Below, piece after piece: positions 22,750-27,573 of a DNA stretch of 64,000 nucleotides (positions are counted from its first letter, which is position 1; each line of letters begins with the position of its first letter). Source of the DNA: Pseudomonas sp. R84 (GTDB taxonomy: Bacteria; Pseudomonadota; Gammaproteobacteria; Pseudomonadales; Pseudomonadaceae); contig NZ_CP019426.1 in the NCBI RefSeq assembly GCF_009834515.1, forward strand, positions 791,001 through 855,000, in the 5' to 3' direction. The translations under genes were made by a program, and so were the position numbers. Below the pieces are notes generated by a model, which was given only the letters and a program-made list of their open reading frames with translations, did not search any database and was not told the origin of the DNA.

Positions 22750-22959
22750 ATGTTCCAGATGATTGTTGATTATTTGACGGCCAGAGTTCGTCTGTTAATT
22801 AGAAACGAGGAAGCAGCATCGGCGATCGAGTACGCGATTGTGGTGGCGATGGTTGCCGTGGTGGTTGTGGCATTTGTGACCCCACTTGGTAATCGGGTGC
22901 TGTTCTACTTCAACAACATCTTGACCGGACTGGGCGGCACTGCCGTGACCAGACCCTGA
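22750..22959 (+). CDS. flp: Flp/Fap-type pilin, copy 1
   Basis: 69 residues, the major pilin type of Tad pili. A short hydrophilic leader is followed by the Flp motif ASAIEYAIVVAMVAVVVVAF with Glu27 at +5 and the Flp-specific Tyr28. The residue at -1 is Ala22 rather than the usual Gly. The ATG has a GAAGGAG site; an in-frame ATG at 22693 would add an unlikely Cys/Arg-rich leader. The short C-terminus (FNNILTGLGGTAVTRP) is typical. A second flp gene follows after 18 bp. Confidence 0.92.
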   Translation: MFQMIVDYLTARVRLLIRNEEAASAIEYAIVVAMVAVVVVAFVTPLGNRVLFYFNNILTGLGGTAVTRP

Positions 22960-22977
22960 CGACCGAGGAGAACTGCG

Positions 22978-23193
22978 ATGCTCTTTGAGTACCTGATGAT
23001 TCGTGCCCGCAGTTTCCTGGCCAATGAGGATGCAGCATCGGCCATCGAGTATGCGATTGTGGTGGCGATGGTGGCAGTGGTGGTCATCGTGTTCGTCACG
23101 CCGGTGGGTGGCCGTGTGCTGGTCATGTTCAATAACTTGCTGGTAGCGCTGGGCGGAACGGCTGTGTCGACCACGCCTGCACCGTCCTCCTGA
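22978..23193 (+). CDS. Flp/Fap-type pilin, copy 2
   Basis: 71 residues, a paralogue of the adjacent flp gene with the same core (ASAIEYAIVVAMVAVVV), Glu24 at +5 and Tyr25. The leader (MLFEYLMIRARSFLANEDA) ends in Ala at -1 instead of Gly. The C-terminus differs, ending in a Thr/Pro tail (STTPAPSS). A GAGGAG site precedes the ATG. It is co-transcribed with copy 1; it may be a minor pilin or a dose increase. Confidence 0.9.
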   Translation: MLFEYLMIRARSFLANEDAASAIEYAIVVAMVAVVVIVFVTPVGGRVLVMFNNLLVALGGTAVSTTPAPSS

Positions 23194-23266
23194 GTTGAAA
23201 CGAAGCTCAATGCCCGGCGAATGTCGGGCTACACTCGGGTTCACTTTCAGTTTTCAGGGATTGCCC

Positions 23267-23677
23267 ATGAATGCTCCTTCGCTGCAGCGCCAACAGTTGC
23301 TTCTGGTTGACGATGAAGAGGACGCGTTGCTGGAGCTGGCGGAGTTGCTGGAGGGTGAGGGTTTTAGTTGTCATACGGCGACGTCGGTGAAGCTGGCGTT
23401 GCATCATTTGACTCGCCATCCCGATATCGCGTTGGTGATTACTGATTTGCGTATGCCGGAGGAGTCCGGGATGTCGTTGATCAAGCGCTTGCGTGAGCAT
23501 ACTTCGCGCCAGCATTTGCCGGTGATTGTGATGTCGGGGCATGCGGATATGGAAGACGTCAGTGATCTGTTGCGGTTGCAGGTGGTAGATCTGTTTCGCA
23601 AGCCGATTTATTACGTCAGGTTGTTGGAGACTCTGGATAATTTGTTTCCCAAGCCTCGGAGTAATGTGGCTGGGTGA
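23267..23677 (+). CDS. Receiver-only response regulator of the tad locus
   Basis: 136 residues: a single receiver domain with acidic pair Asp15/Asp16 (LLVDDEEDA), phosphoacceptor Asp60 (VITDLRMPEESG), VIVMSGHAD and the FRKPI lysine. No output domain follows, so it probably acts by protein contact or as a phosphate sink. The likely partner is PprA or another kinase. An AGGGA site precedes the ATG at 23267; extending to 23195 would add a leader that lacks support. A long repeat begins 10 bases after the stop. Confidence 0.88.
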   Translation: MNAPSLQRQQLLLVDDEEDALLELAELLEGEGFSCHTATSVKLALHHLTRHPDIALVITDLRMPEESGMSLIKRLREHTSRQHLPVIVMSGHADMEDVSDLLRLQVVDLFRKPIYYVRLLETLDNLFPKPRSNVAG

Positions 23678-24172: not shown

Positions 24173-25843
24173 TTACAACTGGTAGCTGAAACTGATGCTG
24201 TACCGGGGCTTGCGATTGAACGTGTCCAGGGCTTCATCCGACATCGCCTTCGCCGCCTCCAGCGCAATGTTGTAGTACTTGGCATCGCCAAACCGTAGCC
24301 CGATCGCGGCCGATGACAGATTGTTGGCCTTTACCGGCAGTTCATTGAACCAGCTGCGCGAGCGATCAAGCACGACATACGGTTGCAGGACGCGCACCCA
24401 GTTGCCGTCGCGGTTGAAGCTGTAGTTGACCTCGTACGCTACGCCCCAGCCCTTGTCGCCGGACGCTTGATCGTCGGGATAACCGCGACCGAAGTTCTGC
24501 CCGCCGAACACCGCGCGTTCGCTGTCTGGCAGGGTGTCGTCGCTCCAGTACAGCGCGGCCGACAGCACGCCTTGCCAGTTGTCGAGGAACTTGTTGCTCT
24601 GCACCCCGGACAGGCGAACGCGGAAGAAATCGAGGTCGATGTCGTCGTAGTTGGTATGCGCGCCCAGGCTGTCGAAACCCTGGTACACGCCGCCACTGAG
24701 AATCCGCAGTTGCCGGGCATCGGCCTTGCGCCAGTCGCCTTCGAAGGCCAGAGCGCGTACGTCGGTGCGGAACTCGGTGCTGAACGGGAAGTTGATGCCG
24801 TTGTAGCGGGTCTTGTCATCGACTGCGTACAGACGCGAGCCGGCGGTCAGCAGTTCGTTGGAGGCGGCAATCAACGGCAGGGTGAAACCGATGGAGTAGC
24901 GGTCGTTTTCGCGATGGGTGCTGAGTCGACCACCGCCGTTGATGAGGACTTCGGTACTGGGATCGGCGCGGTAGCGTGAAGCGGATAAGGCAAGTTGCGC
25001 GCCCTCGTCATTGAGGAACTGGTTGTAGTCGAGGCGGTAGTAATGTTCGTGATCATCACCCGGTGGAAACAGACCGCTGAGGGTCAGTTGTTCGCCCATC
25101 GAGGTTTGCGAATTGCTACTGACGCCGAGCAAAGCCTGGGTGCCGTTGCGGTTGTCTTCGGTGGTGCTCAGCGTACTGGTGAAGGGTTTGCGACTGGCCT
25201 GGGCGACCAGCGTTGTCGCGCCGTCTGTGGTACCGGGCGGTGGTACCTGGGCCTGGATCGTTACGCCGGGGATGCGCGTCATCAGCGTGGTGTAGCGCTC
25301 GAACGTCTTGCGGGTCAGCGGCCGTTCGGCCTGGATCTTCGCCGCCAGTTTGTCGAGCAGGGCTTTGACCCGACCGACATCGCCCTCGATCTGGATATCG
25401 CGCACGTAGCCTTCCACCAGCACCACGCGCGCTACGCCGTCATTGAAATTTTGCTGCGGCAAGAACGCGTAGGACAGCAGGTAGCCGTCCTGCTGATAGC
25501 GTCGAGTGATGCTGCGCGTGGCCTCGATCAGTTCGGCGAGCGTGGCTTGGCGGCCGATCAGGGGTTTGTAGATTTCGGCGAGTTCGTTGAGCGGGTAAAG
25601 GGTTCCGCCTTCGATCTGCACGGTTTGCAAATTGATCTTGGTCTCCATCAACAGTGGTTGCGCAGCGGCGGCACCGGCGTCCGGCACTTGCACGGGCGTG
25701 GCGCTCGGGCGATAGGCGTCGGCGGGCAGGTTCGGCACCGGCAGGTTGCGGATGGTTTCGTTGCTGTTGAGAAAACTGGGCAGGGTGTCGGCGAGGGCGG
25801 CGGAACTGAGACTGAGGAACAGCAGGGATGCCATTACGCGCAT
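24173..25843 (-). CDS. ShlB/FhaC-family two-partner secretion outer-membrane transporter (TpsB)
   Basis: 556 residues. Signal peptide MRVMASLLFLSLSSAALA, then a POTRA_2 domain (about 75-150: YPLNELAEIYKPLIGRQATL, RRYQQDGYLLSYAFLPQQ, DGVARVVLVEGYVRDI), a second POTRA-like part, and a C-terminal 16-strand-type barrel. The L6 VRGY-like motif is present as NFGRGYPDD, and the protein ends in an aromatic-terminated strand (SISFSYQL). Such proteins export one TpsA partner. The only neighbour that fits is the upstream repetitive lipoprotein, which has no recognisable TPS domain. The ATG at 25843 has GGAG seven bases upstream. A terminator separates it from that gene. Confidence 0.88.
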   Translation of the reverse strand: MRVMASLLFLSLSSAALADTLPSFLNSNETIRNLPVPNLPADAYRPSATPVQVPDAGAAAAQPLLMETKINLQTVQIEGGTLYPLNELAEIYKPLIGRQATLAELIEATRSITRRYQQDGYLLSYAFLPQQNFNDGVARVVLVEGYVRDIQIEGDVGRVKALLDKLAAKIQAERPLTRKTFERYTTLMTRIPGVTIQAQVPPPGTTDGATTLVAQASRKPFTSTLSTTEDNRNGTQALLGVSSNSQTSMGEQLTLSGLFPPGDDHEHYYRLDYNQFLNDEGAQLALSASRYRADPSTEVLINGGGRLSTHRENDRYSIGFTLPLIAASNELLTAGSRLYAVDDKTRYNGINFPFSTEFRTDVRALAFEGDWRKADARQLRILSGGVYQGFDSLGAHTNYDDIDLDFFRVRLSGVQSNKFLDNWQGVLSAALYWSDDTLPDSERAVFGGQNFGRGYPDDQASGDKGWGVAYEVNYSFNRDGNWVRVLQPYVVLDRSRSWFNELPVKANNLSSAAIGLRFGDAKYYNIALEAAKAMSDEALDTFNRKPRYSISFSYQL

Positions 25844-25890
25844 AGGACACTCCATGGTCAGATCACAGCACTGGGCTGAATTCTCCTAAG

Positions 25891-25924
25891 AAAAAAGGCG
25901 GAAGACTCGTGGGAATCTTCCGCC
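25891..25924 (-). terminator. Rho-independent terminator between the lipoprotein gene and tpsB
   Basis: On the minus strand, GGCGGAAGA and TCTTCCGCC form a 9-bp stem around a 10-base loop, followed by a T-run (A-run at 25891-25896 on the plus strand). It lies downstream of the lipoprotein stop and upstream of tpsB, so it may attenuate tpsB expression. Confidence 0.85.
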
Positions 25925-25977
25925 CTCAACCAAGCGTAGGCGCTGTAGGTGAGGCCGTCGAATCGGCCAGGTGCAAT

Positions 25978-27573
25978 TTAGCGTTTGTTGCCCCCCAGGG
26001 TATTAGTCAGACCACCGAGTACGCCGCCCAGACCGCCACCGGTGGCAGCTCCGCTGGTACCCCCGCTGGTACCCCCGTTGACCAGTCCACCGACGGCGGC
26101 AACGGTGCCGCCCACGTTGCTGACCAGACCTCCGACCGCTGTGGTGACCGGATTGTTGGTCGCGGCAATGGTGTTGCCGATACTGCTGACCGCACCGCCA
26201 ACCTGGCCGGTGAGACCGGCGACGGGTGATCCGATACCGGTCGCTGCGCCGACTTGTTGGGTCACGTTGGTCACAGCGCTGGTGACCGGATTCAGACCCG
26301 TGCCCAAGGTGGCGCCAACCGTGGCCAGAGGTGAGGTGGTTGCGGTGATCGGGGTGCCCGAACCGCCAAGTACGGTGTTGAGCGAAGCCACGGTATTACC
26401 CAGGCCGACAGCGGTAACGCCGCCTGCGCTGACCACGCCATTGGTATTGCCGGCATTCAGGCCTGCGCCGACGTTGACCACGGCACCGCCGACGGTTTGC
26501 AGCAGGCCAGTACCACCGAGGCCGCCGCCCAGACCACCACCCACACCGCCAGTACCCGAGCCGGTGCCGTTGGACACCAGACCACCAGCCTTGCCGACCG
26601 CGGTGCCGGTATCGCTCAACGCGCCGCCGAGGGTGTTGGTCAAGGCATTGCCGTTACCCGCATCGGTGACCTTGCCGCCCAGGGTGTTCACCGCGCCGCC
26701 GACTTGCGAGATCGCGCCTTTGAGTGGATCGCCGAGCCCGGTGGCAGTGCCGAGTTTGTCGGTGGTGCTTTCGACCATTGCGATCACGGGAACCAGACTA
26801 CCGCCGACTTTGTTCGTCAGTTGGCTGGTCGGGCCGTTGGTCAGCGTGGTGTCGAGGGTATTGCCGAGCATGGTGACTTTCTCGCCGACACCGTCAAGCA
26901 GCGGCGCGACTTTGGTCACAACACCGCCCACCACCGGAACGCTGCCGGTCGCGGTTGCCAGTTTGCCGCTGAGATCAGAGACACCGTTGCCCACATCGGT
27001 CACCACACCGCCGACCGAAGCGACGGTGGTGGTCAGGCCTTTAGGGTCGGTCGCCAGCTTGCCTACGCCATTGGCGACACCGTCACCCAAGGTGCTGACG
27101 ACATTGCCGGCGGTGTTGGCCGCACTTTGTACAACGCCACCGACAACAGGAACGCTGCTCAGCGAGTCACCGATCTGGCCAACGCCATCGCCGACGCCAG
27201 CGACGGTATTACCGACATCCTGCACCAGTGTGGTGGTCACCAACGGTGTGGTGGTTGGATTGGTCGGGTTGGTGGGATCGGTCGGATCTGTCGGGTTGGT
27301 TGGATTGGTCGGATCGGTGCCACCTGTACCACCGGTTCCGCCAGTACCACCTGTGTTACCGGTTCCGCCAGTGCCGCCAGTGCCCGCAGTATCACCGGTG
27401 CCCCCCGTACCGCCAGTACCCGAGGTGCCGCCAGTGCCGGCGGTGCCGTCCGCCGCGGAACTGCCGGAACTGCTTTTATGACCGCCACCACCGCTGCTGC
27501 ACCCGGTGAGGCCAAGGGAGAGAATCAATGCCAGAGCGATTGCCGATTTGCACCATACGCCTTGAGTTTTCAT
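25978..27573 (-). CDS. Repetitive Gly/Thr-rich lipoprotein, candidate TPS cargo
   Basis: 531 residues with a lipoprotein signal (LSLGLTGC, Cys25) and an AAGGA ribosome site. Residues ~26-60 are Ser/Gly. A strict three-residue repeat of GTG/GTS/NTG type then runs for about 15 triplets and switches to PTN/PTD triplets. The rest (~110-530) is Gly/Val/Thr-rich with a recurring VGGxVxxVGxxV pattern (VGGVVTDVGNGVSDL, LGGALSDTGTAVGKAGG). There are almost no aromatics and no Cys after Cys25. Automatic annotation would call this collagen-like. It probably forms an extended surface stalk or fibre. Its position beside tpsB suggests export by it, though it lacks the TPS domain of known TpsA proteins. Confidence 0.75.
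   Translation of the reverse strand: MKTQGVWCKSAIALALILSLGLTGCSSGGGGHKSSSGSSAADGTAGTGGTSGTGGTGGTGDTAGTGGTGGTGNTGGTGGTGGTGGTDPTNPTNPTDPTDPTNPTNPTTTPLVTTTLVQDVGNTVAGVGDGVGQIGDSLSSVPVVGGVVQSAANTAGNVVSTLGDGVANGVGKLATDPKGLTTTVASVGGVVTDVGNGVSDLSGKLATATGSVPVVGGVVTKVAPLLDGVGEKVTMLGNTLDTTLTNGPTSQLTNKVGGSLVPVIAMVESTTDKLGTATGLGDPLKGAISQVGGAVNTLGGKVTDAGNGNALTNTLGGALSDTGTAVGKAGGLVSNGTGSGTGGVGGGLGGGLGGTGLLQTVGGAVVNVGAGLNAGNTNGVVSAGGVTAVGLGNTVASLNTVLGGSGTPITATTSPLATVGATLGTGLNPVTSAVTNVTQQVGAATGIGSPVAGLTGQVGGAVSSIGNTIAATNNPVTTAVGGLVSNVGGTVAAVGGLVNGGTSGGTSGAATGGGLGGVLGGLTNTLGGNKR

What the first reader, a model, noticed from the sequence alone, without database searches (positions are those of the whole stretch)
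24173..27573. Two-partner secretion transporter paired with a triplet-repeat lipoprotein that has no TPS domain
Seen: a complete ShlB/FhaC-type transporter lies downstream of a 531-aa lipoprotein made of GTG/PTN triplets and VGGxVxxVGxxV repeats. Known: TpsB transporters export large proteins carrying an N-terminal TPS domain. This neighbour has a lipobox and no such domain. Inference: either a new cargo class exported through the barrel to the cell surface, or an assembly partner. Proximity to the Tad pilus locus suggests a joint adhesion programme.
Basis: partly seen in the sequence, partly recalled or inferred. Interest (0 to 1): 0.7.

Follow-up and report, generated by a model that had tools for sequence, protein, structure and literature searches.

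The report
Outer-membrane transporter with helical lipoprotein partner
A bacterial outer-membrane export channel of a well-known type is found together, across distantly related bacteria and often beside genes for an adhesive pilus, with a lipid-anchored helical protein that lacks the usual export signal, so it is probably a variant of a known export system that places this protein on the cell surface.

Summary
A 531-aa lipoprotein (Pfam Collagen_mid, 154 bits; no TPS domain) lies directly upstream of a TpsB (two POTRA domains, 16-strand barrel predicted).

The pair is tightly coupled. The lipoprotein lies upstream in 78 of 78 readable Pseudomonas loci. In 149 genomes of the window's genus, all 56 with Collagen_mid over the cut-off carry it next to this TpsB; none of the 80 without the TpsB has it over the cut-off. 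The pair recurs in other families with TpsB only 32-40% identical.

The main rival, a distant canonical TpsA, was tested. The genome's one TpsA without a TpsB beside it occurs in exactly the same 48 of 149 genomes as another TpsB. Five genomes with this TpsB have no detected TPS domain.

The cargo is predicted helical, unlike beta-helical TpsA proteins. The pair is linked to Tad pilus genes; published expression data fit.

Against: 13 of 69 genomes keep the TpsB with no such lipoprotein. Export is inferred, not shown. Collagen_mid lipoproteins and their flp-linked operon were already described in Burkholderia; a TPS reading was not found in the papers searched.

New variant of two-partner secretion, interest 0.6.

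The parts
25978..27573 (-). Collagen_mid lipoprotein gene, 531 aa, presumed cargo
   Evidence: ORF; PF15984 154.3 bits against a cut-off of 31.1; tblastn hit with this protein in 78 of 80 related loci, the 2 misses (L047, L088) having under 400 bases upstream
27499..27573 (-). signal peptide and lipobox LTGC, Cys25; Ser at +2 (predicted outer-membrane sorting, general knowledge)
   Evidence: sequence; G24, C25 and S26-G31 invariant in a 53-row alignment, the window plus 52 of 78 loci
27244..27498 (-). Gly/Thr/Pro triplet linker, residues 26-110 (85 residues)
   Evidence: 33-141 residues in the 53 aligned rows; DNA tandem repeats of 9, 18 and 27 bases
26572..27126 (-). Collagen_mid domain, best stretch, residues 150-334; predicted alpha-helical repeats
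   Evidence: AF2 blocks 69-88 pLDDT up to residue 330; hydrophobic periodicity 4, 7, 11, 14
26077..26505 (-). second helical repeat region, residues 357-499
   Evidence: AF2 model, blocks 60-75 pLDDT from residue 361
25981..26040 (-). Gly/Leu-rich C-terminal tail ending in basic residues
   Evidence: K or R within the last 3 residues in 83 of 91 paired lipoproteins
25894..25927 (-). terminator-like hairpin between the two genes
   Evidence: 15 pairs; that scan's loose criteria find as many sites, 4, as in shuffles, mean 4.4; with a stem of 10 or more pairs, 68 of 78 loci against a mean of 0.05 and maximum of 1 in 20 base-shuffled sets
24173..25855 (-). TpsB (ShlB/FhaC-type) transporter gene; likelier start at 25843
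   Evidence: AF2 model with two POTRA domains and 16 barrel strands by my count of the listed elements; best PDB matches CdiB 6wim and FhaC 4ql0
25409..25633 (-). POTRA_2 domain, residues 75-149
24479..24490 (-). GRGY at residues 456-459, in the place of the Omp85/TpsB L6 motif (motif recalled)
   Evidence: R457, G458 and Y459 invariant in 36 aligned rows, G456 in 90% or more
23267..23677 (+). response regulator between TpsB and the pilin genes
   Evidence: reading frame
22750..23193 (+). two Flp pilin genes, 22750-22959 and 22978-23193
   Evidence: reading frames; named by recall and by the same gene order in the UK4 table of PMC6372562
17787..22418 (-). Tad genes cpaF/tadA, tadZ, rcpA, rcpC (named by recall and by the same gene order in PMC6372562)
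   Evidence: ORFs; found near the pair in most relatives

Best explanation
The two genes form a variant two-partner secretion module. The lipoprotein is made with a lipoprotein signal peptide, is lipidated and sorted to the outer membrane. Its helical repeat region is then passed outward through the dedicated TpsB barrel and shown on the cell surface, where it acts in cell-cell or surface adhesion together with Tad/Flp pili. Recognition must use something other than a TPS domain (the helical repeats, the linker or the conserved C-terminal tail). Shown: the genes, their domains, the lipobox, the conserved pairing, the lack of a TPS partner left over in this genome, and the Tad linkage. Inferred: lipidation, passage through the barrel, surface display and adhesion.
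For: Lipoprotein directly upstream in 78 of 78 readable loci found by TpsB alone. 56 of 56 genomes of the genus with Collagen_mid over the cut-off have the TpsB adjacent on the same strand; 0 of 80 TpsB-negative genomes have one over the cut-off. In a phylum draw, 13 of 13 genomes over the cut-off have such a TpsB next to a copy, counting the own genome. In a class draw, the 2 best TpsB matches besides the own genome both have a Collagen_mid lipoprotein upstream; of the 5 weaker ones, 4 can be read upstream and have none. No TPS partner is left: three TPS proteins in the genome go with three other TpsBs, two by adjacency and one by co-occurrence; 5 of 69 TpsB genomes have no detected TPS domain. 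Tad (tadZ) in 55 of 56 paired genomes. Published: BCAL1524, a Burkholderia Collagen_mid lipoprotein, is in outer-membrane vesicles and promotes autoaggregation (PMC10303873, passages); flp genes and BCAL1520/1523/1524 are co-induced on contact with host membrane vesicles (PMC7970998, passages); in P. fluorescens UK4 the FhaC-like gene listed after the flp/tad genes falls with them in an rpoS mutant (PMC6372562, passages).
Against: 13 of 69 genomes keep the TpsB but have no detected lipoprotein of this family, so the TpsB has another use there or is a leftover. The lipoprotein gene itself is not in the UK4 table: the next two locus numbers do not occur in that paper's main text, whose table lists representative genes only. 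No export, lipidation or surface test exists. The models are of middling confidence (lipoprotein mean pLDDT 65.1, five models 46.9-65.1; TpsB 62.6, five models 51.4-62.6).
Confidence: 0.66

Rival explanations
1. The lipoprotein is an accessory of the transporter (a periplasmic partner, plug or assembly factor), and the real cargo is another protein, for example one made with the Tad pilus.
For: TpsB without the lipoprotein persists in 13 of 69 genomes, 6 of them with Tad. Tad genes lie in the fetched flanks of 70 of 80 loci.
Against: An accessory should follow its transporter, but here the lipoprotein never occurs over the cut-off without the TpsB in the genus draw, while the TpsB occurs without it. 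Lipoprotein copies multiply in some genomes without a TpsB nearby, as cargo would. The relative BCAL1524 has an autoaggregation phenotype of its own (PMC10303873).
Confidence: 0.17
2. The two genes are neighbours in one adhesion and biofilm regulon (Tad, RpoS) but act separately; the lipoprotein reaches its place by the ordinary Lol route and the TpsB serves something else.
For: Co-expression and clustering with Tad; a conserved terminator-like hairpin between the genes would partly uncouple their expression.
Against: Adjacency and order are kept where no Tad gene is in the stretch read (L150-L153) and with TpsB down to 32-40% identity.
Confidence: 0.12
3. The TpsB serves a canonical TpsA encoded elsewhere in the genome, and the lipoprotein is incidental.
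For: The genome has one TpsA of 4179 aa without a TpsB beside it, and that TpsA and this TpsB co-occur more often than by chance: the TpsB is in 36 of 48 genomes with the TpsA and 33 of 101 without (Fisher p 1.5e-6).
Against: That TpsA and another TpsB (L091) occur in the identical 48 of 149 genomes, while this TpsB lacks the TpsA in 33 of 69. Five TpsB genomes have no detected TPS domain, four of them paired with the lipoprotein.
Confidence: 0.04

Closest known systems
Two-partner secretion, type Vb (FhaB/FhaC, CdiA/CdiB)
   Same: TpsB with two POTRA domains and a 16-strand barrel (predicted); partner gene adjacent; N-terminal signal peptide
   Different: Partner has a lipobox, no detected TPS domain, is about 500 aa and is predicted helical, not beta-helical
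Bcc-CLPs (Collagen_mid lipoproteins of the Burkholderia cepacia complex, PMC10224339), e.g. BCAL1524
   Same: Same Pfam domain, lipoprotein, triplet regions; a possible operon next to the flp locus with an outer-membrane protein, BCAL1522 (likely a TpsB by size and place; its sequence was not tested here)
   Different: In the abstract, passages and section read, that work does not call BCAL1522 a transporter for the lipoproteins; POTRA, hemolysin and ShlB occur 0 times in its main text
Surface-lipoprotein export: Slam, and lipid-anchored autotransporters such as NalP and SphB1 (recalled)
   Same: A lipid-anchored protein ends up on the cell surface by way of an outer-membrane barrel (for this pair, inferred)
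   Different: Here the barrel is of the TpsB type and is a separate protein
Classical bacterial collagen-like proteins (Gly-X-Y triple helix)
   Same: Glycine triplets in the linker; relative L038 carries GPT/GPA triplets
   Different: The core is a helical heptad-like repeat; Pfam gives no classical collagen-repeat match

Membership tests
Two-partner secretion (type Vb) | TpsB: two POTRA domains and a 16-strand Omp85-type barrel | tested here: met
   Pfam reports one POTRA_2, the second POTRA is from the model (mean pLDDT 62.6)
Two-partner secretion (type Vb) | Cargo carries an N-terminal TPS domain | tested here: not met
   no PF05860 at E <= 1 in the lipoprotein; the three matches in the genome are elsewhere
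Two-partner secretion (type Vb) | Cargo is a large beta-helical protein | tested here: not met
   AF2 model has helices and no strands (mean pLDDT 65.1); heptad-like hydrophobic spacing
Two-partner secretion (type Vb) | Cargo and transporter genes paired and co-conserved | tested here: met
   exception: 13 of 69 genomes have the TpsB alone
Two-partner secretion (type Vb) | Cargo crosses the outer membrane only with its TpsB | not testable with these tools
   needs a deletion experiment
Collagen_mid lipoproteins (Bcc-CLP type) | PF15984 domain over the curated cut-off | tested here: met
   154.3 bits against 31.1
Collagen_mid lipoproteins (Bcc-CLP type) | Lipobox and low-complexity triplet regions | tested here: met
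Classical collagen-like proteins | Gly-X-Y triple-helix region | tested here: inconclusive
   no collagen-repeat match at E <= 1, but the linker has glycine triplets and a single-chain model cannot show a triple helix
Slam surface-lipoprotein translocon | Slam-type barrel with periplasmic TPR domain (recalled) | tested here: not met
   only POTRA_2 and ShlB reach their Pfam cut-offs

The most novel reading that the evidence does not exclude
A branch of two-partner secretion has switched cargo class: its TpsB recognises an alpha-helical lipoprotein without a TPS domain and threads its C-terminal helical part outward, while the lipid anchor stays in the periplasmic leaflet and the triplet linker (33-141 residues in 53 aligned relatives) runs through the pore. 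The barrel would then be both exporter and permanent holder of a surface adhesin that works with Tad pili.
Probability: 0.25. Interest if true: 0.82.

Novelty: new variant of a known kind. Interest (0 to 1): 0.6.

Why it matters
TpsB transporters are understood to select cargo by a TPS domain, and beta-helix folding is often invoked as a driver of export (general knowledge). A TpsB branch dedicated to a helical lipoprotein would show that neither is required, would give Collagen_mid lipoproteins of Pseudomonas and Burkholderia a route to the surface, and would tie them to Tad pili. It also offers a small, genetically simple system for asking what drives transport through an Omp85 pore.

Tried and rejected
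A distant canonical TpsA as the real cargo: tested by co-occurrence and not supported. A result that leans the other way, the co-occurrence of that TpsA with this TpsB (p 1.5e-6), is best read as shared lineage, since the TpsA matches another TpsB genome for genome.

A lipoprotein hidden elsewhere in the 13 genomes with TpsB alone: none found with a 53-row profile at E <= 0.001; both positive controls in the same call were found. One of the 13, G096, has a Collagen_mid match below the cut-off on another contig, with no TpsB in the stretch around it. A remnant of the lipoprotein before those TpsB genes: none seen by eye in the translated upstream frames.

A gene fusion (P0003, Candidatus Burkholderia verschuerenii) joins Collagen_mid to POTRA and barrel, but by eye the transporter's signal peptide, the start of its POTRA and its last residues are missing, so it may be a decayed gene; given no weight.

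A known fold for the lipoprotein: Foldseek against PDB gave no match at E <= 0.001; the best, at 0.012, is a designed single-chain six-helix barrel. A profile search of PDB sequences gave none at E <= 0.1. A GLT[GSNK] C-terminal motif: in 68 of 91 only, so not defining.

Mistakes of mine and their repair: the first CpaF query was in a wrong frame and was redone in frame; Tad counts are. The lipobox pattern in the scripts missed L080 and L150-L152, whose sequences read LSGGC and SLQGC. A text search for neighbouring locus numbers in PMC6372562 could not match because of the prefix and was repeated. The output was cut, so some of its stretches were seen only through.
Full report
What is there. 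On the minus strand, 27573..25978 encodes a 531-aa lipoprotein and 25855..24173 a TpsB. Pfam finds POTRA_2 and ShlB in the transporter and Collagen_mid (PF15984, 154.3 bits, cut-off 31.1) in the lipoprotein, with no TPS domain. NCBIfam named neither above its cut-off. The window is Pseudomonas by its relatives: the best TpsB match in genome contigs, which may leave the own genome out, is 98% identical, in Pseudomonas sp. Irchel 3H7. The likelier start of the TpsB is the second ATG, 25843.

The lipoprotein. Cys25 is followed by Ser; G24, C25 and S26-G31 are invariant in a 53-row alignment (window plus 52 of 78 loci). A Gly/Thr/Pro linker of 33-141 residues in those rows leads to a domain whose hydrophobic residues recur at 4, 7, 11 and 14 (residues 111-332 tested). 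AlphaFold2 makes most of the chain from residue 112 to 499 helical, with no strands; 256 of 531 residues reach pLDDT 70-90, none more. No PDB match at E <= 0.001. So the core is not a beta-helix, and the collagen likeness lies only in the linker's triplets.

The transporter. AlphaFold2 gives two POTRA domains and 16 barrel strands (my count; mean pLDDT 62.6). The best PDB matches are CdiB and FhaC; by sequence the best solved relative is CdiB, E 1.9e-9.

Pairing in Pseudomonas. Searching with the TpsB alone gave 80 loci (of 96 confirmed; the best 80 were kept). In 78 a Gly-rich ORF lies directly upstream; the other two (L047, L088) have under 400 bases there. The window's lipoprotein hits all 78 by tblastn. 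In a draw of 149 genomes of the window's genus, 58 have a Collagen_mid match, 56 over the cut-off; 69 have the TpsB; all 56 are adjacent and on one strand. The two matches below the cut-off (G028, G096) have no TpsB in the fetched stretch around them.

Pairing elsewhere. In a 398-genome phylum draw 18 have a match, 13 over the cut-off. All 13 have such a TpsB next to at least one copy: the own genome, two more of its genus and ten outside the genus, three of them in its family, at 32-40% identity. Of the five below the cut-off, three were read (G028, G155, G483) and have no TpsB; two (G266, G345) were not read. Seven further stretches hold Collagen_mid copies without a TpsB in the stretch (L139, L141, L143, L144, L146, L147, L148); an eighth, L154, ends too soon to tell. 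In a 369-genome class draw, eight genomes matched a TpsB profile at E <= 1e-60: the own genome; two at 394 and 420 bits, each with a Collagen_mid lipoprotein upstream (58.7 and 150.4 bits); and five at 205-269 bits. Of these five, four have no such gene upstream, one of them lying beside a TPS-domain protein, and the fifth (L171) ends 0.3 kb upstream. These searches do not score every first-look candidate (for instance 19 of 25 for the own genome, 7 of 25), so counts of presence may be low.

No TpsA partner. The genome has three TPS-domain proteins and four POTRA_2 transporters. Two TpsA lie beside a TpsB. The third, 4179 aa, has none beside it, but it and the TpsB of L091 occur in the same 48 of 149 genomes. 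This TpsB lacks that TpsA in 33 of 69, though the two co-occur more than chance (p 1.5e-6). TPS domains were found in 119 of 149 genomes; five TpsB genomes have none (G042, G100, G103, G106, G116), four of them paired.

The exceptions. In 13 of 69 genomes the TpsB (49-60% identical) has no Collagen_mid lipoprotein over the cut-off; a 53-row profile found none in any of the 13, and found both controls. There pbpC (name by recall) lies directly upstream in 12 of 13. In a 47-sequence tree these 13 and two paired loci (L087, L089) form one clade, support 100, sister to the other paired Pseudomonas; the paired loci from other genera branch deeper. L087 and L089 have pbpC, lipoprotein and TpsB in that order. 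The simplest reading is a paired ancestor and later loss of the lipoprotein; whether once or several times is open, because L087 and L089 are placed among the exceptions with supports of only 67 and 75. The deepest ingroup node has support 75, and only three outgroup TpsB were used.

Tad. tadZ is present in 55 of 56 paired genomes, 6 of 13 with TpsB alone and 22 of 80 without TpsB; in the 58 of 61 where TpsB and tadZ are on one contig they are 2.2-8.3 kb apart. Of 80 loci, 70 have Tad genes in the fetched flanks; six of the other ten end 0.2-3.0 kb after the TpsB, four have the full 10 kb without Tad. Six of ten distant paired loci have Tad genes too. Genomes of one genus are not independent, so p-values overstate; recurrence across families carries more weight.

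Expression and prior work. A hairpin with a T-rich tail follows the lipoprotein gene in 68-69 of 78 loci, far above 20 base shuffles; it could make cargo more abundant than transporter, which is inference. In P. fluorescens UK4 the FhaC-like gene listed after flp/tad falls to 0.017 (mRNA) and 0.38 (protein) in an rpoS mutant (PMC6372562, passages); that it is the orthologue is inferred from its place, and the lipoprotein gene is not named in the main text. In Burkholderia cenocepacia the operon BCAL1524-1520 beside flp (PMC2753556, passages), its induction with flp (PMC7970998, passages), BCAL1524 in vesicles and in autoaggregation (PMC10303873, passages), and the lipoprotein family (PMC10224339, abstract, passages and section 10) are published. 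Vesicles do not prove surface exposure. That BCAL1522 is the matching TpsB is inferred from its size, place and annotation. Eight searches of the paper library brought up no paper whose title or abstract makes the TPS link; of the listed papers only the five named here were opened.

Verdict. It works like two-partner secretion in anatomy and pairing, but a defining feature of TPS cargo was tested and not met, so it is filed not as a canonical TPS system but as a variant.

Noticed in passing
L168:5442-6419: Directly downstream of the TpsB lies a 325-aa protein with an apparent signal peptide and VTDTVxGLTGG repeats like those in the C-terminal part of the lipoprotein, without a Pfam match; possibly a second client.
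   Followed up: partly
L122-L132 and L134: In 12 of 13 genomes with TpsB alone, pbpC (penicillin-binding protein 1C, name by recall) lies directly upstream of the TpsB; in two paired loci (L087, L089) the lipoprotein sits between them.
   Followed up: partly
L012, L021, L026 and others: The Tad genes lie in the opposite orientation and order relative to the TpsB in part of the loci, yet stay linked to it.
   Followed up: no
window 22750-23677: Two flp pilin genes in tandem, followed by a response regulator gene.
   Followed up: no
P0003: A database protein joins Collagen_mid with POTRA and ShlB domains; it lacks the transporter's signal peptide and last residues and may be a decayed gene.
   Followed up: partly
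L142:7254-10435: Two Collagen_mid lipoprotein genes in tandem before one TpsB, as described for BCAL1523-1524.
   Followed up: no
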